Shown here: positions 14,608 through 28,858 of the stretch, piece after piece | Position numbering within the stretch: position 1 is the first letter of the stretch | Layout of the letters: every line of letters starts with the position of its first letter | Origin: Acanthamoeba castellanii str. Neff | Taxonomy: Eukaryota > Discosea > Longamoebia > Acanthamoebidae | Length of the DNA stretch: 28,858 bases | NCBI RefSeq assembly: GCF_000313135.1 | Contig: NW_004457364.1 | Span: 1-28,858, forward strand | Direction of reading: 5' to 3' | Made by a program: the position numbers and the translations under genes | Notes under the pieces: model-generated | What the model saw: only the letters and a program-made list of their open reading frames with translations | What the model was told of the DNA's origin: nothing | Database searches by the model: none

Positions 14608-15714
14608 ATGACGACGTCCTTCGCGCCCTGCAAGGTGCCTACCCTTTTCCTCTCACCAAACATGAAGCAAACGTAGGACTAATCGACTTTCTTCCTTCAC
14701 GGCAGCAACCCTTGACCAACACCCACATGTGGCATGTGGTAAACGGCCGAGGGCTCAAGGTGGGACATGCAGCATCTAGAATCGCGCGCCTTCTCATCGG
14801 CAAGCACAAGCCCACCTACAACCCCGCCTGTGCGCACCTCAATCTTTTTCTTTCCTCCCTCAATCCGGATAGCACGATTTTCCGGAAGTAGCATAATTCG
14901 CTGGTGAGCTCACTACTCGCCACACCATGGCTGCCATGTCGATTGTGTGTGCATCTCTTCTTTCATCGGCAGTCGACGCGGGCGACTACGTGGTGGTGAC
15001 CAACGCGGAGAAGCTCATCTTCACCGGCGACAAGTGGAAGCAGAAGCTCTACCGGTGGCACACGGGCTACCCCGGCGGTCTCAAGGAGGTGAAGGCCAAG
15101 GACATGCTCTACAAGCACCCCGATGCCATCATCCGCACTGCCGTCTCCAAGATGGTGCGTGCTAGCACCACTCGCCACTCACTTCATCGCGGCTCCTGCC
15201 ACTGTCGCATCGGTCGGTCTGCCACTGTGCGCTCATTGTGTCGTGTGTTGTGTGTGTCGTGTGTTGTGTGTGTCGTGTGTGTGTGTGTGTGTGTCGTGTG
15301 GTCTGCTTGCAGCTGCCGAAGAACAAGCTGAGGTGGGAGCGGCTGAAGCGGCTGAGGGTGTTCGTGGGCGAGGAGCACCCGCACGAGGGGCAGGTGTCGC
15401 AGGGCTACCACTACCAGGTCGAGCCCCAGAGCAGGAGCGCCGTCGACCCGGCCCTCGCGGCCTTCCGGGACCAGGTGGTGGCCGACCCCGACGCCTTCGT
15501 CCGCAAGTACGGCGGCGGCAAGTTCTCGATCGTGCCGCAGGAGCAGGGCATGGCCGTGGTGGCCACCAAGATCAAGGGCACCCACGCCCACGCCGTGCGC
15601 TCCTTCGGCAACACCCGCTCGCTCCGCGCCGCCCGCCTCGACCGACTCCGCAAGGTGGTCGAAGACATCCAGTCCGCCCAGGCCCGCGAGGCCGCCAAGC
15701 GCGACCCGCTCTAA
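14608..15714 (+). CDS. MRPL13: Mitochondrial ribosomal protein uL13m
   Basis: It is a large-subunit protein of the bacterial-type (mitochondrial) ribosome. Exons: 14608-14634, 14706-14829, 14973-15154 and 15313-15714; exactly 244 codons plus stop. The uL13 core is MWHVVNGRGLKVGHAASRIA, LLIGKHKPTYNPAFDAGDYV, then VVVTNAEKLIFTGDKWKQK, HTGYPGGLKEV and MLPKNKLRWERLKRLRVF. This is the bacterial HTGYPGG / MLPKN pattern, not cytosolic uL13, hence the mitochondrial call. There is a short N-terminal extension and a C-terminal extension of roughly 90 residues beyond the bacterial core. The start at 14608 was chosen because the 27-nt exon 1 joins in phase (AAG|CAA) through a GT-AG intron. The gene shares a 173-bp divergent promoter with ISY1. 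Confidence 0.93.
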
Positions 15715-15903: not shown

Positions 15904-17633
15904 TTACACGTTGTAGGTGGTGGAGTGGGTGGCGCCGCCGCGGCCGGTCCAGTTGGTGTGGAAGAAGAGGCCGCGGTCGCGGTCGACGCGCTCGTAGGTG
16001 TGGGCGCCAAAGTAGTCGCGCTGGGCCTGGAGGAGGTTGGCGGGGAGGCGCGCGGTGCGGTAGGCGTCGTAGAAGGAGATGGCCGAGGCGATGGCCGGGG
16101 CGGGCACGCCGTGCTCGACGGCGAGGGCGGTGATCTTGCGCCAGCCGGCCTGGGCCTTGTCGATCTGGTCGCGGAAGAAGGGGTCGAGCAGGAGGTTGGT
16201 GAGGGCGGGGTCGCGGTCGAAGGCCTCCTTGATCTTGCCCAGGAAGGTGGAGCGGATGATGCAGCCGCCGCGCCACATGAGGGCGATGCCGCCGTAGTTA
16301 AGCTTCCAGTCGAACTTGGCGTCGGCGGCGCGCATGAGCATGAAGCCCTGCGCGTAGGAGACCAGCTTCGACGCGTAGAGGGCGTCCTTGAGGTGGCCCA
16401 GCACGGTCGCGCGGTCGCCGGCAAAGGGCGGCAGCCCGGCGGGGCCGGCCAGGACCGCGGCGGCGGCGGTGCGGTCGGCCTTGAGCGAGGAGAGGGTGCG
16501 CGCGAAGACGGCCTCGCCGATGAGCGTGACGGGCGCGCCAAAGTCGAGGCCGGCCTCGACGGTCCACTTGCCGGTGCCCTTCTGGCCCGCCGTGTCGAGG
16601 ATGAGGTCGACCACGTGCGCGTCGGGCTGCTCGTCGTCCCGCTTGGCCAGGATCTCGGCCGTGATCTCGATCAGGTAGCTGTTGAGCTCCCCGCGGTTCC
16701 ACTCGGCGAAGGCGGCGTGCATCTCGTCGTTGCCCATGCCCAGCAGGTGCTTCATGACAAAGTAGACCTCGCAGATGAGCTGCATGTCGCCGTACTCGAT
16801 GCCGTTGTGCACCATCTTCACAAAGTGGCCCGCGCCGCCCTGGCCCACCCAGTCGCAGCACGGCGAACCGTCCTCCACGCGCGCCGCGATGGCCTGGAAG
16901 ATGGGCTTCACCGCCTCCCACGCCTCGCACGCCCCGCCCGGCATGATCGACGGCCCCAGCAGCGCCCCCTCCTCGCCGCCCGACACGCCCGCGCCCACAA
17001 AGTGCAGCCCACGCGCCGCCAGGTCCCGCGTGCGCCGGTTCGAGTCCGGGAAGTGCGAGTTGCCGCCGTCGATGATGATGTCGCCCTCCTCGAGCAGCGG
17101 CGCCAGCGCGTTGATGAAGATGTCCACCACCTCGCCCGCCATCACCATCAGCATCACCTTGCGCGGCCGCTTGATGCTCTTCACCAGGTCCTCCAGGCTG
17201 TGGCACCCGACCACGCTCTTGCCCGCCGCACGCCCGCTCACAAAGTTGTCCACCTGCACTCACCACCCGCCATCACCACCACCACCCCCGGGTGTTAGCA
17301 CGCCGCGCCGCTTTGCTCTTTTTCACCCGGCCCTCCCTCCCATTGGTCGCCCGCAGAGCCCAACCACGCAACACTTCTTATTCAGTGGGCAATAATAATA
17401 ATAATAATAGTGATAAATTCAAGCCCTCATCCGCGAATAATGGATTTTGATTTTCAAAACAACAAAATAAAATGATTGCACCTGGTGACACGAGTACGAG
17501 TGGGGGGGGGAAGTGCCTTGGACGTGGTGCGGTTGTACACGGCCACAGTGAAGCCGTGGTTGAGCATGTTGAGCACGAGGTTCTCGCCCATGACCGCCAA
17601 ACCCACCAAACCGATGTCCGCCGTGGCTGCCAT
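15904..17633 (-). CDS. PGD: 6-phosphogluconate dehydrogenase, decarboxylating
   Basis: It is the oxidative pentose-phosphate pathway enzyme that turns 6-phosphogluconate and NADP+ into ribulose 5-phosphate, CO2 and NADPH. It has two exons, 17517-17633 and 15904-17253, encoding 488 residues. Motifs are the dinucleotide loop GLVGLAVMG (8-16), NRTTSK (34-39), [13 protein letters not shown] (101-113), GVSGGEEGA (128-136), [17 protein letters not shown] with catalytic Lys185, [11 protein letters not shown] and the C-terminal [10 protein letters not shown]. Its single intron (17254-17516) begins with GC, not GT. The exact family match at the junction (TSK|VDNF) and the phase leave no suitable GT donor. 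The intron is AT-rich at its centre. There is no obvious organellar presequence, so it is probably cytosolic. A 450-codon uninterrupted exon with high GC3 produces long antisense shadow frames. Confidence 0.97.
17254..17516 (-). other. GC-AG intron of 6PGD
   Basis: The exon ends in CAAG and the intron opens GCACTT; it ends in TGCAG before GTG GAC. Phase 0 on both sides restores the invariant TSKVDNF segment. No GT donor in phase 0 exists in the neighbouring 40 nt. Confidence 0.8.
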
Positions 17634-17863
17634 GTTGTGTTGTGTTGTTGTGTTGGGAGGATCGAGAGTCACAAGGAAGGGCGGCCTTTATTTTCTCGTC
17701 TGCGGGTCTCCCCGATCTTCTCCCCGCCCGCCGGCGCGTGCAGAACATTCCAGAGGCTTGGGTACCACGAATTCCGCCTTGAAATTTCGGCAGCTTCGAA
17801 AAAAAGGAGAGAAAAGAGGGCGAGAAAAAGGCCGGGCCACCAAGAGAGTACACAAGAGAGCTG
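17634..17863. promoter_or_regulatory. Divergent intergenic region, 6PGD / ZnT-like gene
   Basis: 230 bp between start codons. TTGTGTTGT-type repeats lie next to the 6PGD ATG and an AAAAAGG/GAGAAAAG purine tract lies before the ZnT start. No TATA box is evident. Confidence 0.4.
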
Positions 17864-19921
17864 ATGGAAGAGGATTTCGGAGGGGCGGCGGGGTATACCC
17901 CCCACAGCGGCGGGGCCGGTGGCGGCAGCGGGGTCTGGGGCCGGCGTAGCGCCGTGAAGGGCCTCCTCAACCAGCCCGAGTCGCGTCGCGTGGTGGCCTT
18001 CTTCGCCGTGTTCGCCGCGTTCGGCCTCCTCCAGTTCCTCCACGCCTACCTTTCGGGCAGCCTCGGTATACACCTTCCCCCCCTCCTCTTTGCCTCTTGA
18101 CACGCCTCTTTCTTTTCTCTTCTTCTTCAACAACGACCGCAACTCGTGGTCCAGCTTTCCTCCCGGCTGACCGAAAGGTGTGGTGTCGTTGGTGACGTGT
18201 CATGATGTGCGTGCGTGCGTGGCCAATGCGGCAGCGTTGATGGCGTTGAGCTTCCACACGGTGTTCAACGCGGTGAACCTCAGCCTCACCCTCCTGGCCA
18301 TGCTCTGTGCTCGCCTCAGCCCCACCCCTAGCTACACCTACGGGTACGTGTGCTGTGTGTGTGTGTTGTGTGTGTCGTGTGTGTGTGTGTGTGTGTGTGT
18401 GCCCCAGCCGCCTGCCGCCCGCCCACTCACTCAGCACGCGCCCACACGTGTGTGAGTGTCGAAGTTTGCGTTCCATTGCCCTCCCCGCGCGTGCGCACAC
18501 GCGACTGATCGATGGCCGGTGGTGCGGTGGTGGTGGGTGGCGCAGGTACCAGAGGTACGAGGTGGTGGCGGGGTTCGTGAACAGCGCGTGCCACTCGTTC
18601 GCGGCCATCTTCGTATTCTTCGAATCCGCCGAGCACCTCCTCATCGAGAGCGAGGCGCCCGAAGACCTCACCAGGCACACTCCCCCCTCCCCTCCTCCCC
18701 CTCCCTTTCCCACTCCCTCCCGTTGACGCGCCGCCACCGCACTTCTATATTTTTTATCTTTCATTCTAATGCGTCATCAACTATACACATTTTAAATAGA
18801 GATTGATTGCATATTTATATATATATATATGTGCAATTACAATATAAACAATATATTGACAGGAGGGAGGGGGGTTGTGGTGGGGATGGACACAGCTGGG
18901 AGGTGGCGCTGGTGGGGCTCGTGAGCGTGGGGCTGAACCTGGTCTGCCTCGTCTCCTTCCAGCCCCTGCGCCGCTTGACCACCCTCGGTACCGCCGCCGG
19001 CGTCGCCCATTCGACTAGACCGCTATTGCCCTGCCCCCCCCCTCGAGGCATCCGATTGGCAAACACGTGTTTGCTGTTGCTGCTGCTCTGTCGCTGCTGC
19101 TGCTGCTGCTGCTAATGGTGATGCATGGTTTGTGGAACTGGCTGGGTGTTGGCAGAGTCGCCGAGCGAGGCTGAAGATCAGTCGTGGGCGGTGATGAGTA
19201 CCATCGCCGTCACGGTGGCCACGCTCGTGGTGCCCTTCCTCCTCAAGTGGTACCGTGGCCCTCCTCTCCTCTCCTCCTCCGGGGTTGCGCTGCCGCGCGT
19301 GTGCGATGCTCACCCGTCACGGGTGTGTCGTGTCGTGCTGTTTGTTGTGTTTGTTGTGTCGTGTGCACCAGGGGCCTCGCAATGGGGGACATGGTGGTGG
19401 CCGTCTTCACGGCGGTCGTGCTGCTGACGGTGGCCACGCCGTTCGCACGCCACACGGGCAAGGTGCTGCTCCAAACGACCCCCAACGTCATCAAGGACCG
19501 CCTCGGCAAGAGCCTCTCGGAGGTACGCACGCACACACGCACCCGACCGACGTCCCACGCCCGCACACCGGTGGCCTCCTTTTCTCATTCTATCGATGAT
19601 ATCCGCCGGCAGGCGGCCATGTACGAGGGCGTGCTCGAATGCCGCAAGGAGCACTTCTGGGCGCTCTCCCCCAGTACCCCCCACCCCCCCACCCCCACAA
19701 CTGCGCGTTTGCACCACCCCATCCGTCCACGCACCCACCCCCTTATGTTGTTGCTGCTGCTGCTGCTGCTCCCGCCAGACGAGTATGTGGGGAGCTTCTT
19801 CCTGCGGGTGAAGCAGGACACGGACGAGCAGCTGGTGCTGGCCAAGGTCACCAACCTCTTCTCCGGCTTTGTCAAGCACCTCACCATCCAGATCGAGAAG
19901 GAGGAGTCCTACTTCCAATGA
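17864..19921 (+). CDS. ZnT6-like SLC30 (cation diffusion facilitator) protein
   Basis: SLC30 proteins move Zn2+ out of the cytosol into the secretory pathway; animal ZnT6 is a non-transporting partner of ZnT5. Exons: 17864-18065, 18235-18343, 18546-18674, 18896-18987, 19156-19249, 19372-19522, 19613-19673 and 19779-19921; exactly 326 codons plus stop. There are six hydrophobic segments, and YGYQRYEVVAGF stands in the usual YxFGxxRxE position. The cytoplasmic end matches the ZnT6/ZnT5 group: GKVLLQTTPNVI, EGVLECRKEHFWAL, then VRVKQD-like LRVKQDTDEQLVLAKVTN. Metal-site residues are incomplete: TM2 has HTVFN instead of HxxxD, and TM5 has no HxxxD. Intron 3 (18675-18895) is GC-AG. A dimer-partner role is inferred. 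It converges on the myosin with only 83 bp between stops. Confidence 0.85.
18675..18895 (+). other. GC-AG intron 3 of the ZnT-like gene
   Basis: The exon ends in ACC AG, the intron opens GCACAC, and the acceptor is ACACAG. The phase-2 join gives DLTSWEV and leads into TM4. The nearest GT donor gives the wrong phase. The intron is strongly AT-rich, including an (AT)n run. Confidence 0.75.
18812..18832. repeat. (AT)n run in the AT-rich ZnT intron 3
   Basis: An ATATAT run sits within a roughly 110-bp AT-rich block (18745-18860), in strong contrast with the GC-rich exons beside it. Confidence 0.85.
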
Positions 19922-20004: not shown

Positions 20005-23000
20005 TCAGGCGTCGGGCGTGGGGTCGAGGAAGGTGCGCAGAGGTTTGTCGTCTGCGGTTCGGTTGGAGAAGGTCGCACTGAACCAGGCCTCCACCGCCGG
20101 TCCGCCACCTTCCGCCGCCTCCCTGCGCACCTGTTCGTCGTCGCAGCACTGGGCCAGCACACCTGGCAAGGCCGGGGAGAGGGTGTGGTGAGACTCGGGA
20201 CTGATGGGAGGGCATTTTCAAGATCGTGAGAGAAGCGTCGGGCAGTGCGTACCGCTCAGCCGGACGTTGGGGCGCGATAGGCGGGCAAGGGCTTTGGCCT
20301 CATCGCTCTTGCTGAAGGCGCACATGGTGGAGTCGTAGGCCCCCGATTCGTAGGGCGGCGGTGTGCTTGCGGCGGAAGCCACGGGCGTGATCCGGAGAAG
20401 CAGAGAGGCGCAGGGCACGGGCGGGGCGGTGTGCAGCATGCCGTGCCGTATGCTCTGCCCGGCCGGCGGCGCCTGCTTGAGGGGCACCTGGAAGCAGCCC
20501 TCATTGAGGACCACCTGGTTGGACGTACCACGACCGCGCACGCGCACGCGTTGAGGGTCAGGAGGCTGGTACGGCATGACACGTGCGGGCGGCGGGCCGG
20601 AGTACCTGAGGGTGGGCGAGGTGCGGGTCGGCGGGCTGCCGGCGGGAGTTGGCGAGGCAAAAGACGTTGAGGGTGGCATAGCCCAGCACCTTCTGCTGCC
20701 CGGTGCCCTTCTCCAGGCCAGCACCTTGGCCACGAGCGTGAGGGTGGCGTCGGTCATCCGCATCCGTATCGTACGGTGATACTGTGCAATGCAAAGCGCG
20801 CACGCACGCACGCACAGGACACGCACGCACGCACAGGACACACACGTCACCATAGAACCATATCTTAGCATTTACCGTGGCGGATTGGGGGGATGAACTC
20901 ATCGCAACGAGGTCCCTTCTGCGCCAGAGAGGGACTGTTGCGGGAGAAGGAGGTCTAGAGAAGGGACACACGCACACGCACCGCAAAGACGGGGTTATGT
21001 GCGGAGGAGACCAGGGCGGGAAGGGCGAGCATCTCCGGACCCATCTTCTTGCCCGTGGCCCGGTACAGCTGCCCCAGCACCTGCGCCCGCCGCCCCCCGC
21101 AGCCAGCCACCGCCAGCCAGCCAGCCACCGCCACACGAACACAAGAGGGGGGAGGGGAGGAGGAAACCCTCAGTGCCTGACATTGGGGGGCTTACCATTG
21201 GGGGGGGGGGCATGCGCGCGTGGTACCGTGGCGGCTACGCAGTTGGAGGGGAGAAGGCGAGCGCCGTCGATGCTCAGGGTGAACCCCACGTGGCCCTCGA
21301 ACCTCTTCGCTGTACCTCGGCGGAGACACGTCGCGTGTGAACAACAAAACACTCGCACCCACCCACTCGCAACCTACTACGTCGCGTGGTCGTCCGCAAG
21401 AGTGGCGCGGAGGAGAGAACGAAAGAGAACGAAAGGGGAAAAAGAGGGGAGGGTTGGTACGCGGGGGGAGGCCGTTGTCGCGGGGGAGGAACCAGGGGAG
21501 GGGCGTGGGGGGCATAGGGGGGGACTCGGGCGCGCCAAAGACCGTGCGCAGGTCGGGGTAGGACCCCTGGGCGCGCAGGGACCCGCGCACCGCTCGCACC
21601 CGCGACTTGCGTTCGGCCGGCGGCGGCGTCGATGGTGGCGTCATCGCCGCCCGCGAGATCCGCGGGGAGGCCAGAGACCTCCTCCTTCCCGCTCCTCCTG
21701 TGGCCACGACTGCAGATTGGGACATGCGCTGCCTGGCCCGCTGCTCCCGCTGCTGTCGCCGCTGCTCCTCCTTGAGCCGGGCCTCCCTCGCCAGGGCCAT
21801 GCTACGCGACAGCCTGCGTCCCACGTGCCGCCGCCAACATCTCTGTTGCCACCCCACCCCACCACCCACCAGCCCCCCAGGCCAGCAGCAGCTCCTGCGT
21901 GATGAGCGTCGAGTGTACCGTCGTGGTGCATCGGTGAAAATACAATAAATAAACAAATAACCCGTGTATACCTGAATGACGATGGCCGCCTTCTCCCTCC
22001 GCCTGCGCTGCCGTGCTCGATACGCCCGCCACCTGCGCACACCACCCCCGTGCCCCCCCTACGATGTGAGACCTCCCGTCCTTCTCTCATTCCATCACCA
22101 CCACCATCATCACCATCACCATCACCACAGCCGCCACGACCGCCACGACCGCCACGACCACCACCATCACCACCACCACCACCACGACCACCAGCCACCA
22201 TCAGCCGCCGCCGCCATCACCGGGTGGGCGAACCGAGTCTGGATGACGAGGGCGAAGCAGTGCAGCGCGGCATCGCGAAGGCCGTTGATCTGGACGTACT
22301 GTACCGTGCCGTATGGTGCCAAGCAAAGGGGCGTGAGGCCACCCATATATGGGTGGTGGTGGTGGTGTTGCGCGTGGTGGCTGGTGGTGGTGGTGGCGGC
22401 GGCGGCTGGTGGTGGTGGCTGGTGGTGGTGGCTGGTGGTGGCGGCGGGCGTACCTCCTTGGCGCCCAGGAAGACCTTGGACCGGCCCATCTGCACCCCGT
22501 CGAAGCAGATGTGGGCCTGCTGCTTATGGATGTGCTCCACCAACGCCTGCCAACCGCCGGCGCCGCCACCGCCACGAGGTCAGCAGGTGGTGGCGGAGAG
22601 GGGGGCGAGCAAGAGAATCGCGTGGACGCGACGAACCTCACAGGCGCCGACGTAAAAGGCGTGGGCGGCCTCAGCGTCGCCGGGCCGCAGGGCGGCTTCC
22701 TCGCTCCTCCACGCGGCATCGGCTCCCTTCTGCCGCAGCAGCAGCAGCACCCGGTACCTGGCCCGCCGCCGCCGCCGCCGCTCCAACATCAGCCGCGATG
22801 GTCCTCGTTTGGAGGGGTGGTGCAGCTCTCTTCCACTCAAACCCGGGGGTTGGTTGGTTGGTTGGTTGGTTGGTAGGTTGGTTGGTGTAGGTACCGGCGG
22901 TAGAAGTGCGGGAAGGGGAGGCGCACGGGGTATCCGTCGCGCCGGATCCGCACACACTCCATGAGGCCCGCGCACCTGGCCACCGCATAGTTGGGTGTGT

Positions 23001-26000
23001 GTGTGTGTGTGTGTGTGTAAGGCGCCGCCCTACCACACGAAGAGGGAGTGCGTGCGCGCGTGTGCCTATGGAAGGGGCGTGGGCGTGGCGCACCTCAGCT
23101 GCCGGAGGACCTCGAAGGGCTCGAAGAGGTCCCGCTGCTTGGCCCCGTTGGGCTTGATGCACCGCACAAAGTGCAGATCTACCGGCACCAGCCACCGCCA
23201 GCCACCAGCCACCACCAGCCACGCAGCAGTAGTTGGACCAAAGGCGTCTTCGGGCGAGGAGGGGCAGCGACGTACCCGTCGCCGAGAGAGTGGCCACGAG
23301 GCGGTCCAGCTGGGCCTGATGGCGAAGGAGGAATGTTGGAGCATCGCTCGTGTGAGACGGCAGATGCCGCGCAAGAGATCAGAGAAGAGAGAGAGAGAGA
23401 GAAGGAAGCAGCGGCCTAGTAGTAGGAAGGGCGAACGGGCGGGCAGGAAGGCAGGTGCTACACAAGAGGCGGACGCACCCTGAAGAGGTCGGCGAGGGTG
23501 GGGCGTTGCTTGGCGGCGGTGGCGGTGCCGGTGCCGGCGAACAGGGAGGCGAGGAAGGGGAAGGCGCTGCTCTGCTGGAGGAGCAGGGTCAAGTCGACGG
23601 CCATGTGGTCGTTGTTCTTGGTCGTCATAGCCTCCACGCAGTACTCCACCACCTCCGCATAGTGGCGACCTTGAAGTGCTGCGACGCCCTGCACACGCGG
23701 GTGGTGGGTTACCTGCGACGGCGTTCGTCGGGCAGGTGCTGCGCTGCTGCTGGTGGTGGTGGTTGTGGTGGTGGTCGCACCTGTCAGGGCGGGACTTGAC
23801 GAAGGAGGGACTGCGGGCGTGGGCGTTCGTGACCTTGGCCAGGAAGCCCTGGTCGCTTCCCTTGGGCACCCGGCACTCCTCCGAGAGCAGCGGAAACACG
23901 CCCGCAGGTTTCTATGACACACGCGCGACACGCGGCGTACTTCAGCTGCGGCCCAAACCCACGCAGGCACCGCCACCACTACCCTTTGAGGGAGGCGGAG
24001 GAGGAGGCGGACCTTTTCGAGGAGCTCCACGCACTCGTGGTTGTTGTTGAACTCGATGGTGATCCAATCGATCCCCTCGGCCTCGTACTCGTCCTGCTCC
24101 TGCTGGAATATGTGCTGGTTGAAGAGCTGCTGCAGCTTCTCGTTGGCGTAGTTGATGCACAACTGCGCTCGAGAACACAACCAGTGGGTGAGTGCGAGGA
24201 AACCGTGCACCGTCGGTTGGTGGTGGTGGGGGGTTTGTGTTGTGCGTTGTGCGCGTTGTGTGTTGTGTGTGTTGTGTGTGTTGTGTTTGAGCACGACACC
24301 TGTTCGAAGGAGTTGGTGTCGAAGATCTCGAACCCGAAGATGTCGAGCACGCCGATAGACTTGAAGGCGGGCGCCGACGACCGGGCAGGCGCGAGGGTCT
24401 GATTGATGCGCTTTACCAGCCAATGGAAGAGGGCCTCGTACAGGGCCTTCGACAACACATCGCTCGACTGACGGGCCTGTCGCACGACACGTGGCAACAG
24501 GATAGGAATTGGATAAGTGAATTGTGTGTGTGTTTGTTGTCGTGTCGTGTCGTGTCGTGTCGTGTCGTGTCGTGTCGTGTCGTGTCGTGTCGTGTCGTGT
24601 CGTGTCGTGTCGTGTCGTGTCGTGTCGTGTCGTACCTCGTCGGGGGAGAGAGGGATGACGTAGATGGAGTTGCGGGAGGAGGACCCCATGGTGCGGCTAC
24701 AGAGCACCCGCTCGAGCTCCTCCGCGCGGTGCCCCAGCAGTTGGGCCGCCAGACGCAAGTCTGCGAGACCCCGGTCAGTCACGTCCACCGCGGTGGACAG
24801 GAGAGTGCTGGAGTAGGGGGGGAAAAACAAAACAAAACAAAAAAAAACAAAAACAAAATAGATAAAAGAGAAATAGAACGTGTACCCTCTTGGCTATCCA
24901 CCATGGCGCCCTTGGCAGAGGTGCCGCGACGCTTGCAAAACTGGACCACCGATCGCGAGAGTGAGCAATCAGGCGCGTGGCGTCGTGCCTGCCAGTGGCC
25001 ACACTAAAAACAAACAATGAATGTACGTATGGTGGTCGGTACCTGCATGTTGCCCAGATGCAAAATGGCAGCCATGATCTGGAAGATGGCGTCTTGCTCT
25101 TTTGCGCCGACGCCCAGCACGGTGAGCGCATCCTGCAAGGTGGACACAGGATGATAAATAAAGGAAAGAGTGAGTGTGAATAGGACCAGCAAATCAATGC
25201 AATCATACCGTAAGTGTGTGGAAGTCTTTGGCGTCGTCCACGCCGTCAATGCGGGTGCAGGAGCCCTGGCTGAGGTACCGAAAGTGCTCCGCTGAGCGCA
25301 GCCCAAAGCGCTCTGCAAACCGATGCAGCATCGTTATTTGAGAAGTGGAGATTCCACGGTTGTGGGCCAGCAAAGCTGTAGTGCGTACTCTTGCGTGTCT
25401 CATCGAGTCCTGCGCACAGCTGGTAGAAGGAGTGGTAGTTGCGTTCCGTGTGGCTCTGCGTGCAGATGCGTGATTTCTCCAGCAGGTCTGCCCACACCAA
25501 CACAAGAGGTTAGCGAGAAGGGGTACGAAAGGGAAGGGGCCAACACATCATCATCAGCAGCAGCAGGGCGTAAGCAAACATCAGCGGAAGCGCATTCTCG
25601 CGTACAGCTGATGACCTCGGCGCCCTGCATGCGCCCGCGGGCGTCGAAGAATATCTTCACGAACTTGCCGAAGCGAGAGGAGTTGTTGTTGCGGGCCGTC
25701 TTGGCGTTGCCTGCGCGCACCGACAAATAGTATGTATCGTTGGTCGTCTCGTGAATGTGTGTCCGGAGATTGGTTCGTTCACAACTGGTGTGTGTGGTGG
25801 TGGTCGTGGTGGTGGTGGTGGTGGTGGTGGTGGTGGTGGTGGTGGTGGTGGTGGTGGTGGTGGTGGTGGTGAGTTGCGTACCGAAGGCCTCGAGGATGGG
25901 AGAGGCCTGAAGGAGGCGCTGCTCGATGCTCCCGGCTGATGGCGATTCGCCACCGCCGCCGGCGTGGTGGGCCGGCGACCTGGCGAGGAGGAGGCCGCTC

Positions 26001-27045
26001 GCGTGGGACAGGTACTTGAGGATGAGCTTCGTCCCTTCCGTCTTCCCCGCACCCGACTCTCCGCTGAGCGCACGCACACGTACACGACGTGCACGTCGTA
26101 AGGTGCAATAGCGTACGGGGAGCCATCATCATCATCCTCATTATCATCATCACCATCATCGCCGTCGTGGCCAGGACGAGGAGATCTCAAGTCCACCGGT
26201 GCCGCTCGCGGACCCGCCCGCGTCGTAGGTACGTGCCTGATGAGGACGGACTGGTCGCGATTCTCGGCGAGCAGGCGCTGGTAGGCGGCAGCGGCCACCC
26301 CGTAGATGTGGGGCGAGCCGGACCCGTCGGCCTTGGCCTTGGCAAAGCGTTGCAGGTGGGGCTCCCCGTGGTGGTTCGTGAGGACCTTGTACGGGTTGAC
26401 GCTCACCAGGATGGGGCCCACGTTGGTCTGGCCTCGTCCACATCACACGGCACCACCGCGCACCGCGCACAGCACAAATTGCACACACGACACACACGAC
26501 ATACCGCACACGACGCACACCACCACCACCACCCACCAGCAGCACGTGCGCATGTGCACAGGGCAGAGCGGTGGTGAGTAAGCAACGTCGTCTCGTCCGC
26601 GGTAGGTGCACGTGTGTGCGGGGGGGGGGCAAGGTCACGTGCATAGATGAGGTCGCGTGCGTGGCGCTGCTTGATGTGGTGCAGGATGGCGGGTTCGCTG
26701 AGCTCAGCGAGATCGACCAGGTCGTCGAGGGGAGTCAGCCAGTTGTCCTCCACGCGCCCCAGCACGTCCGCCCGGGCCACCGCCACCACGTTGGAGGGTT
26801 CCTTCCGGTCTCCCGCCTGGTCGCCGTCGCTGCCGTCGTCGTGGAGGTAGGCCACGGTGAGGTGCTGCCCGCTGCTGCTGCTGCTGCTGCTACCGGAGAC
26901 GTGGTGCCCGCCGACCACCTCCGCACAGCAGAAGGCCTTGGCGGCGTGGGGGACCCACACGCGGGTACCCGCCTCCAGGAACCCGAGTCCGCCGCCTCCG
27001 CCGGCCTTCGCGGTTGCGCCCCTTCTGGTCGAGGCCTCCCTCCAT
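20005..27045 (-). CDS. Unconventional myosin heavy chain, 2 IQ motifs, C2-like tail
   Basis: An actin motor of about 1255 residues in 27 exons. Exons: 26639-27045, 26237-26432, 25882-26063, 25606-25710, 25389-25487, 25209-25312, 25043-25132, 24886-24940, 24636-24760, 24300-24476, 24013-24162, 23781-23911, 23479-23688, 23276-23315, 23094-23178, 22895-22975, 22637-22757, 22454-22546, 22234-22298, 21972-22032, 21461-21842, 21239-21309, 20982-21080, 20876-20918, 20606-20781, 20253-20514 and 20005-20162. An SH3-like N-terminus is followed by [12 protein letters not shown]-loop [10 protein letters not shown], switch [10 protein letters not shown], switch II DIFGFE and FVRCIKPN. Two IQ motifs ([11 protein letters not shown] and [12 protein letters not shown], about 837-865), a charged helix and a Pro/Ser linker precede a C2-like domain. 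Frame corrections of one base are needed near 27020 and 23667, and probably two compensating ones in exons 24-25. The acceptor of intron 1 (GAG) is non-typical. No MyTH4, FERM, SH3 or long coiled coil is seen. Confidence 0.88.
22093..22200. repeat. (CAY)n-rich block with CCACGACCG units
   Basis: Runs of CAC/CAT flank three CGCCACGAC units in the myosin intron between the exons that make IQ motif 1. It can be read as poly-His, but the surrounding exon phases show it is intronic. Confidence 0.85.
22848..22875. repeat. (GGTT)n tetranucleotide run in myosin intron 16
   Basis: Seven near-perfect GGTT units lie immediately inside the donor side of the intron between FYRR and YRVLLLL. Confidence 0.9.
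24541..24633. repeat. (CGTGT)n pentanucleotide tandem array, about 18.6 copies
   Basis: Perfect 5-bp repeats fill most of myosin intron 9 (24637-24759 to 24477 side). They are read through in many frames but lie between coding exons joined in phase 0. Confidence 0.97.
25795..25871. repeat. (TGG)n trinucleotide array in myosin intron 3
   Basis: About 25 copies with one TCG interruption near 25805. On the coding (minus) strand this is a (CCA)n run in the intron that separates LEAF from [10 protein letters not shown]. Confidence 0.95.
26064..26236 (-). other. GC-AG intron 2 of the myosin, just before the P-loop
   Basis: The exon ends in CTC ATC AG and the intron opens GCACGT. The next exon starts C GGA GAG, so only this join produces the invariant [10 protein letters not shown]. 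The GT 3 nt further in gives the wrong phase. Confidence 0.85.
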
Positions 27046-27287: not shown

Positions 27288-28823
27288 TCACGCGTCGTGT
27301 TCGTCGCCGAAATCATCGAAGTCAAACACATCGCGGCCGCCGCCGCCGCCGCCGCGGGAGGAGGCGGTACCGAGCGTCTTCGTCTTCGTCTTCATGGCGG
27401 CGGCGGCGGTGGTGCGTGGGGCGGCAACGGTAGGGCGGCGCGTGGGCAGCGCCTTCTTGCCGAGGAAGGCCAGCAGCTCGTCCTGCTCCTGGCGGAGGGC
27501 CTTCTCCCGCCGCTTCTGGTGCCCGTCGAAGTCGAACGGGTCGTCCTCCGGGTCGTCGTCGTCGTACCCTGCGTGCCCCGCCGCCGCCGCCGCCGCCTCC
27601 TCGTCGATCTCCTCGGCCATGCGCTCGTAAGGGTTGATCCACCGCGTCTTGCGCTCCTCCTCGGCCTCCTCCTTCTCCAGCCGCGTCCGGCTGCGCGAGC
27701 GAGCCAGCGTCGTAGGCCGCGCCTTGTTGGGGCTCAGTTCCTTGCTCTGGGTCGGCGCCTCCCGATGGCGAGACTTGGCTCTGGTGGTGGTCGTGGTCGT
27801 TGGTGAAGGACAGTCAAGGATGCTGGTCGCCACGGCGCGACCCTTCTTGCCCTTTCGTTCTCTCTGCTGCTGGCCGCCGGACGGCGCCTTGGCCGCACCC
27901 TTTGGCGCGCGCTTGCGGGCTGCCTGCGCGCCGGACGCGGACTTGGAGGTGGCCACCGGTGACGACGATGATGATGGCGGCGTGTCGCCCTCCTCTTCCT
28001 CCTCCGCGTGTGCGCGACTGGTGCGGGTCTTGGTGGCCGCCCGCTTGTTGGTGTTCTTCTGCTGCGCGGATTCCTGAAGGGTCCTCTTCTTGGGCGCGGC
28101 AGATGGTGAGGGTGGTGCTCCCCGCTTCAACGCGAGCCCCTTCCGTTGCTGCTCCGCTGCCGCACTTCCGCCGCCGCCGGCATTGTCGCCTTCGTGCGGT
28201 CGCCGCCTCTTCCTGGTGTAGGACGCGGACAGCGGTTTCGAGCCACCGACGCCACCCCGCGCGTTGCCCTCTTCGTCCTCGTCATCGTCATCGTCATCGT
28301 CACTCCAGAACAGGATGTCTCGGGTGCGTCCGCTCTCCTCGGTTGTTGACTGGGTCTGTGGCCTGTGGGCCTTTGCCTCGGGCCCTTTCCTTTCTTCCCG
28401 CTCGGCCTCCTCCTCCTCCTCTTCGTCATCCTCTCTTTTTGCTTTGCCGCCAGCGTGCGGGCGTGGACCCAAGGCCACGACCGAAGTGTGCCCGTCATCC
28501 TCGTCCTCGTCCTCGTCGCGGTGCATGGGCTGCCTGAATCGGAGCTTGAGGCTGCGCTGCCGCCCATCAGCAGCGCCGAGCTCGGTGTCTTGTGAAGCCG
28601 ACGTCGCCGCCGTGTCGTCGTGATTCCGCTTTCGCCGGACGTACTGCGGCCCGTCGCGCTTGCGCGGGGACGGACTGTACGTGGCCAGCAGATCTTCGTC
28701 GGGAAGGCCCCGCCCCCGCTGCTGCTGTGGAGAATTAGCCGCGGCCGAGGGACCACACACGATGGACGGGTTCCACAGGGGCCACATGTCCAGCATCGCC
28801 ACCGACGCGTCCTGCGTGATGAC
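27288..28823 (-). CDS. Unrecognised low-complexity protein, 5' part outside window
   Basis: One open exon encodes the last 511 residues of a protein I do not recognise. Just before 28823 the coding strand reads TTTATTGCTCGAACAG, a good splice acceptor, so earlier exons probably lie beyond the window. The segment starts VITQDASVAMLDMWPLWNPS, the only part that looks folded. The rest is disordered, with clusters of Asp/Glu, Lys/Arg, Ser and Gly, many basic patches resembling nuclear localisation signals, and YSPSPRKR and KKRTLQESAQQKN. It ends in a Gly run and FDFDDFGDEHDA. Composition suggests a nuclear or nucleic-acid-associated protein, but no function can be assigned. The stop is 242 bp upstream of the myosin start, in tandem. 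Confidence 0.6.
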   Translation of the reverse strand, partial: VITQDASVAMLDMWPLWNPSIVCGPSAAANSPQQQRGRGLPDEDLLATYSPSPRKRDGPQYVRRKRNHDDTAATSASQDTELGAADGRQRSLKLRFRQPMHRDEDEDEDDGHTSVVALGPRPHAGGKAKREDDEEEEEEAEREERKGPEAKAHRPQTQSTTEESGRTRDILFWSDDDDDDDEDEEGNARGGVGGSKPLSASYTRKRRRPHEGDNAGGGGSAAAEQQRKGLALKRGAPPSPSAAPKKRTLQESAQQKNTNKRAATKTRTSRAHAEEEEEGDTPPSSSSSPVATSKSASGAQAARKRAPKGAAKAPSGGQQQRERKGKKGRAVATSILDCPSPTTTTTTRAKSRHREAPTQSKELSPNKARPTTLARSRSRTRLEKEEAEEERKTRWINPYERMAEEIDEEAAAAAAGHAGYDDDDPEDDPFDFDGHQKRREKALRQEQDELLAFLGKKALPTRRPTVAAPRTTAAAAMKTKTKTLGTASSRGGGGGGRDVFDFDDFGDEHDA

Positions 28824-28858
28824 CTGTTCGAGCAATAAATCAGGAGGGGTCAACGTGT

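What the first reader, a model, noticed from the sequence alone, without database searches (positions are those of the whole stretch)
20005..21842. Myosin motor fused to a C2-like / CCDC17-like tail
Seen: after two IQ motifs and a Pro/Ser linker the protein continues with [20 protein letters not shown], then, under the corrected frame, [32 protein letters not shown] and [10 protein letters not shown]. From memory, the IDGARxLP, QSAxY, GYATLNVF and LNEG...Q pattern resembles the C-terminal domain of CCDC17-type proteins, which I take to be C2-like. Known Acanthamoeba myosin tails are TH1/GPA/SH3, coiled coil or MyTH4-FERM. Inference: a little-described myosin class whose cargo or membrane binding uses this domain.
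Basis: partly seen in the sequence, partly recalled or inferred. Interest (0 to 1): 0.75.

Follow-up and report, generated by a model that had tools for sequence, protein, structure and literature searches.

The report
Amoeba myosin with uncharacterised tail
An amoeba gene encodes a motor protein of the myosin family whose tail matches no family in the libraries searched; the tail does belong to the motor gene, but the idea that it is a membrane-binding C2-like domain could not be shown.

Summary
Partly right. A minus-strand gene (26 exons, 26984 to 20005, N-terminus open) in an Acanthamoeba castellanii-type genome encodes a myosin motor (PF00063, 717 bits), two IQ motifs, a basic Pro/Ser linker and a C-terminal domain of about 250 residues. 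An apparently intron-free contig protein, P0001, agrees with the window at 319 of 320 residues and joins the exon with half of IQ2 and the linker to the tail exons, so motor and tail are very probably one transcript. One single-base frame break remains in the tail, two in the motor. The tail has no Pfam, NCBIfam or PDB match; a home-made C2 profile scores it at noise level; AlphaFold failed (pLDDT 32). C2 and CCDC17 kinship thus rest on recalled motifs. The motor fits no class clearly. Its TEDS residue is Ser in R-N-S-I-Y, suggesting PAK-type control. Best reading: an orphan unconventional myosin with a lineage-restricted or very divergent, possibly C2-like, tail. Many orphan myosins are known, so interest is moderate.

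The parts
22454..26984 (-). Myosin motor domain, exons 1-18, with P-loop GESGAGKT, switch [11 protein letters not shown], switch II DIFGFE, SH1 region [18 protein letters not shown]; weak N-terminal SH3-like start (Myosin_N 15.8 bits, under its cut-off of 27); true start codon not resolved; frame breaks at the 24887/24807 junction and near 23666
   Evidence: (PF00063 716.8 bits)
24636..24807 (-). Exon coding the TEDS site: Ser437 of the joined protein in R-N-S-I-Y, 16 residues before the Asp of DVLSK
   Evidence: the 16-residue spacing is recalled, the TEDS rule itself is in PMC6981383 (passages)
21972..22298 (-). IQ motif 1 (split over exons 19/20) and first part of IQ motif 2 (exon 20)
   Evidence: (PF00612, 2 stretches)
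21461..21842 (-). Exon 21: rest of IQ2, Arg/Glu-rich stretch, basic Pro/Ser linker (after IQ2: 121 aa up to the tail domain, net +15)
20982..21309 (-). Tail domain exons 22 (21309-21227) and 23 (21080-20982): [14 protein letters not shown] to SSAHNPVFA
20876..20954 (-). False exon (number 24, TSFSRN...FIPQSAT): intronic, absent from P0001 and P0002
20606..20781 (-). Tail exon 25: [20 protein letters not shown] then [19 protein letters not shown]; single-base frame break near 20718
20253..20514 (-). Tail exon 26: [12 protein letters not shown]...[13 protein letters not shown]...[11 protein letters not shown]; 72 of 87 residues identical in P0003
20005..20162 (-). Last tail exon 27, ends ...FLDPTPDA stop; 31 of 52 residues identical in P0003

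Best explanation
The gene makes a single-chain unconventional myosin: motor, two IQ motifs, a basic linker and a C-terminal domain of about 250 residues. Shown: motor, IQs and the first tail exons lie in one unbroken frame, the tail exons are joined to each other and to the linker in an intron-free contig, and the tail is conserved in a more distant relative. Inferred: calmodulin-type light chains bind the two IQs; a PAK-family kinase switches the motor on at the TEDS serine; the basic linker together with the tail domain, perhaps a C2-like beta sandwich that does not need calcium, holds the motor to an acidic membrane or to a cargo protein, so that the motor pulls that cargo along actin or tethers it there.
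For: PF00063 716.8 bits and two IQ stretches. One uncorrected frame from motor to tail. P0001, 319 of 320 residues as in the window, joins exon 21 to the five true tail exons. P0003 conservation 72 of 87 and 31 of 52. TEDS Ser in R-N-S-I-Y and linker charge +15. TEDS phosphorylation regulates class I myosins of Acanthamoeba, and A. castellanii has a PAK-family myosin I heavy chain kinase (passages of PMC6981383 and PMC8847673). In the C2 profile alignment the tail's NPVF and LGYA fall on the C2 'nPvw' and 'lG' positions, though the score is not significant.
Against: No library recognises the tail. C2 profile score at noise level. The tail lacks the 'SDPY' motif and double-Asp loops of calcium-binding C2 domains (by eye, against the alignment). 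AlphaFold gave no usable model. P0001 does not itself reach the motor, only the exon that holds half of IQ2. Frame breaks in the motor leave a small chance that this copy is decaying.
Confidence: 0.5

Rival explanations
1. The tail is a protein-protein cargo adaptor of a fold specific to Acanthamoeba and near relatives, not C2 and not membrane-binding; the architecture is an ordinary orphan myosin.
For: No match in Pfam, NCBIfam or PDB. Only three relatives, two near-identical and one at 60-83% by exon, in a protein set of 5.77 billion. No second copy found in the genome (these searches score only their best candidates).
Against: Recalled motif layout (IDGARxLP, NPxF, GYAxLNxF, LNEGxxQxP, PCASLLxR, PPYExGxYDS) looks like C2-like tails of CCDC17-type proteins of other organisms; the protein searches restrict candidate length and need shared 5-residue words, so absence is weak evidence.
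Confidence: 0.35
2. The motor gene and the tail are two neighbouring genes that the reader joined.
For: P0001 and P0002 start inside exons 21 and 22 and do not reach the motor.
Against: P0001 joins exon 21, which carries half of IQ2, to the tail; both IQ motifs are split over exons 19-21; the frame runs unbroken from motor to tail over exons 13 to 23.
Confidence: 0.04
3. The window copy is a pseudogene, as it has several single-base frame breaks.
For: Breaks at the 24887/24807 junction, near 23666 and near 20718; start codon frame unclear.
Against: At the tail break two other contigs (P0001, P0002) read through, the motor signature motifs searched for are intact, and the tail matches P0001 at 319 of 320 residues; assembly error is simpler.
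Confidence: 0.07

Closest known systems
Myosin superfamily (PF00063), orphan unconventional myosins of protists
   Same: Motor with P-loop, switches and SH1 region, two IQ motifs; PMC5583752 reports 287 unclassified orphan myosins (passages)
   Different: Tail matches no family; motor scores similarly with several classes (best entry per class 445-528 bits)
Acanthamoeba class I myosins
   Same: Serine at the TEDS position in a basic-x-Ser-x-Tyr setting (consensus recalled); basic region after the neck
   Different: No TH1 or SH3 match in the tail; the best class I motor in the PDB rows shown scores only 445 bits
C2 domains (PF00168)
   Same: Possible NPxF / lGyA landmarks (weak)
   Different: No significant score, no SDPY motif, no calcium-loop aspartates (by eye)
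CCDC17-type C-terminal domain
   Different: Coiled-coil partner replaced by a myosin motor; no sequence was at hand to compare

Membership tests
Myosin superfamily | Myosin head above Pfam cut-off | tested here: met
   716.8 bits against a cut-off of 33.3
Myosin superfamily | P-loop, switch I and switch II motifs | tested here: met
   GESGAGKT 179, [10 protein letters not shown] 246, DIFGFE 492 in the joined protein
Myosin superfamily | IQ neck | tested here: met
   PF00612, two stretches, 24.6 bits against a cut-off of 20.3
Known Acanthamoeba tail types (TH1/SH3, MyTH4-FERM, DIL, coiled coil) | Pfam match in the tail | tested here: not met
   no such family among the seven hits at E <= 1 (query with the false exon) nor for P0001-P0003 at E <= 10; coiled coil was not scored separately
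A defined myosin class (II, V, VII, X, XI, XV, I) | clear class preference of the motor | tested here: inconclusive
   best entry per class 445-528 bits among 60 rows shown of 150; control class II motor 654 bits with class II; no tree built
C2 domain (PF00168) | sequence profile match | tested here: not met
   no Pfam hit; -0.3 bits, 25 of 1000 shuffles reach it, while the 15 C2s left out one at a time score 25-103 bits
C2 domain (PF00168) | eight-stranded beta-sandwich fold | tested here: inconclusive
   AlphaFold model pLDDT 32, unusable; no fold search made
CCDC17-type proteins | homology to their C-terminal domain | not testable with these tools
   no CCDC17 sequence held; searches returned none; of 46 papers that name CCDC17 the 15 listed titles and abstract openings are not about its domains
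TEDS-regulated myosins | Ser/Thr at the TEDS position | tested here: met
   Ser437, 16 residues before Asp of DVLSK (spacing recalled)

The most novel reading that the evidence does not exclude
A separate myosin class of Acanthamoeba-like amoebae that uses a calcium-independent C2-like domain, otherwise met in CCDC17-type proteins of ciliated organisms (recalled), as its membrane or cargo hook in a cell without cilia, switched on by a PAK-family kinase.
Probability: 0.35. Interest if true: 0.55.

Novelty: new variant of a known kind. Interest (0 to 1): 0.36.

Why it matters
Myosins are sorted by motor and tail, and the tail sets the cargo. A tail outside the families that libraries describe would add a way in which an actin motor is hooked to its load, in the genus in which unconventional myosins were first found (recalled). 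It also gives a conserved, unnamed domain that can be expressed and tested. The splice evidence corrects the reading of the tail.

Tried and rejected
Searches with that exon in the query were followed by searches with the cleaned tail. Led nowhere: two viral-contig scans (33 and 5 pattern matches, none a relative); a protein search sized for CCDC17-length candidates (746 candidates, none at E <= 10); own-genome searches for tail paralogues (the gene itself; the other 32's 33 matches fall on query bases 471-547, window 20860-20784, which is intron); AlphaFold, so no fold search was made. No motor phylogeny was built: reference motors of all classes were not at hand. Papers: the two myosin classification papers (PMC5583752, PMC3942036) and the A. 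castellanii genome paper (PMC4053784) were seen as passages only; 'C2 domain' occurs 0 times in the main text of each. I did not find this tail in print, but that rests only on searches of an open-licence library, mostly seen as listings.

Full report
What is there. The window is part of contig C176 (253,091 bases) of a 38.4 Mb assembly in 250 contigs. The minus strand from 26984 to 20005 holds 26 exons with 25 introns: 22 GT-AG, 2 GC-AG and one odd junction that coincides with a frame break. Exon numbers below are those, in which number 24 proved false.

Motor and neck. The joined protein scores 716.8 bits with the Pfam myosin head and has two IQ stretches. P-loop, switch I, switch II and the SH1 region are intact. 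The N-terminus is weakly SH3-like (E 0.012, under the cut-off) and its start codon is not resolved: its open frame holds no ATG before it.

One gene. From inside exon 13 to the end of exon 23 one frame runs without correction; this piece of 432 residues alone scores as myosin head (113.8 bits) and IQ (21.4 bits) and ends in the tail. IQ1 and IQ2 are both split over introns, which ties exons 19, 20 and 21 together. P0001 (320 aa on a contig of 1075 bases) agrees with the window at residues 1-143 and 145-320 and joins exon 21 to the five true tail exons. As that stretch spans about 1.6 kb of genome, a 1075-base contig that holds it must be free of introns, hence most likely cDNA; this is inference, the library is not named. 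P0001 does not reach the motor.

Correction to the finding. P0001 and P0002 both read NPVFA-YHRTIRM. The stretch 20954-20876 with FIPQSAT is thus intron. It is 79 bases long, so adding it shifts the frame, which made two corrections seem needed. One single-base break remains near 20718; P0001 and P0002 read through it. Two further breaks lie in the motor (24887/24807 junction and near 23666).

The tail. It has about 250 residues. P0003 (195 aa, metagenome contig of 1209 bases) shares 72 of 87 residues of exon 26 and 31 of 52 of exon 27, and carries an intron-like insert between them. The first protein search gave 3 relatives among 4480 candidates; a second, with the tail region of the whole protein, none at E <= 0.001 among 6007; both queries still held the false exon. 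A third, with the cleaned tail and sized for CCDC17-like proteins, gave none at E <= 10 among 746. Pfam at E <= 10 gives nothing for P0001-P0003, NCBIfam nothing for P0001 and P0002, PDB only chance hits. No second copy was found in the genome, and a DNA pattern for the P-C-A-x-L motif matches once in the genome, here.

Is it C2? A profile of 15 classical C2 domains (3 from this genome, 12 copied from PDB alignments) scores each member, when left out of the profile, at 25-103 bits, but the tail at -0.3 bits (P0002 core; 0.3 for the P0001 core); of 1000 shuffled tails 355 were reported and 25 reach the P0002 score. The alignment falls in the expected register (NPVF, LGYA), which is a hint, not a result. 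AlphaFold with three sequences gave pLDDT 32.

Class. The motor's best PDB match is 7dhw (528 bits; named 'Motor domain of myosin', which I recall as plant class XI), then, taking the best entry of each class among the 60 rows shown of 150, myosin VIIa 493, 7kch 480 (class not named), X 478, II 474, XV 463, Va 461, I 445. The control, this genome's own class II motor over 595 residues, scores 654 bits with a class II motor that I recall as Dictyostelium's. The best-scoring other place in the genome is that class II gene, 43% identical over query 178-857, favoured by having few introns. By my grouping of the 143 matches the genome has about 20 myosin loci. The class stays open.

How it may work. 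TEDS position: Ser437 in R-N-S-I-Y (the 16-residue spacing is recalled). TEDS phosphorylation regulates class I myosins of Acanthamoeba, and A. castellanii has a PAK-family myosin I heavy chain kinase (passages of PMC6981383 and PMC8847673); that the kinase prefers basic-x-Ser/Thr-x-Tyr is recalled. The linker after IQ2 is basic (net +15 over 121 residues). I therefore favour a kinase-switched motor that is held to membrane or cargo by a basic linker plus the tail domain. The attachment step is inference only.

Verdict. A real, apparently single-copy, probably expressed unconventional myosin with a tail unknown to the libraries searched. PMC5583752 already counts 287 unclassified myosins (passages), so such an architecture is not in itself a surprise. 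The C2/CCDC17 reading would raise the interest, if shown.

Noticed in passing
26642-26428 and 26236-26064: Two introns of the myosin gene seem to use GC donors (both GCACGT) instead of GT; by hand, the nearby GT alternatives break or lengthen the frame.
   Followed up: partly
17863-19921 (+): Spliced cation efflux gene (zinc transporter type, PF01545, 85.7 bits), convergent with the myosin; 83 bases lie between the two stop codons.
   Followed up: partly
15904-17259 (-): 6-phosphogluconate dehydrogenase gene, main exon intact (PF00393, 422 bits).
   Followed up: partly
about 14608-15714 (+): Ribosomal protein L13 (uL13) gene with TG-rich introns by eye (open frame of the last exon: PF00572 23.3 bits, just under its cut-off).
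   Followed up: no
27288-28856 (-): Long open frame rich in acidic, basic and low-complexity stretches (522 aa, no Pfam hit at E <= 0.01).
   Followed up: no
G000 (whole assembly): About 20 myosin loci, by my grouping of 143 PF00063 exon matches.
   Followed up: partly
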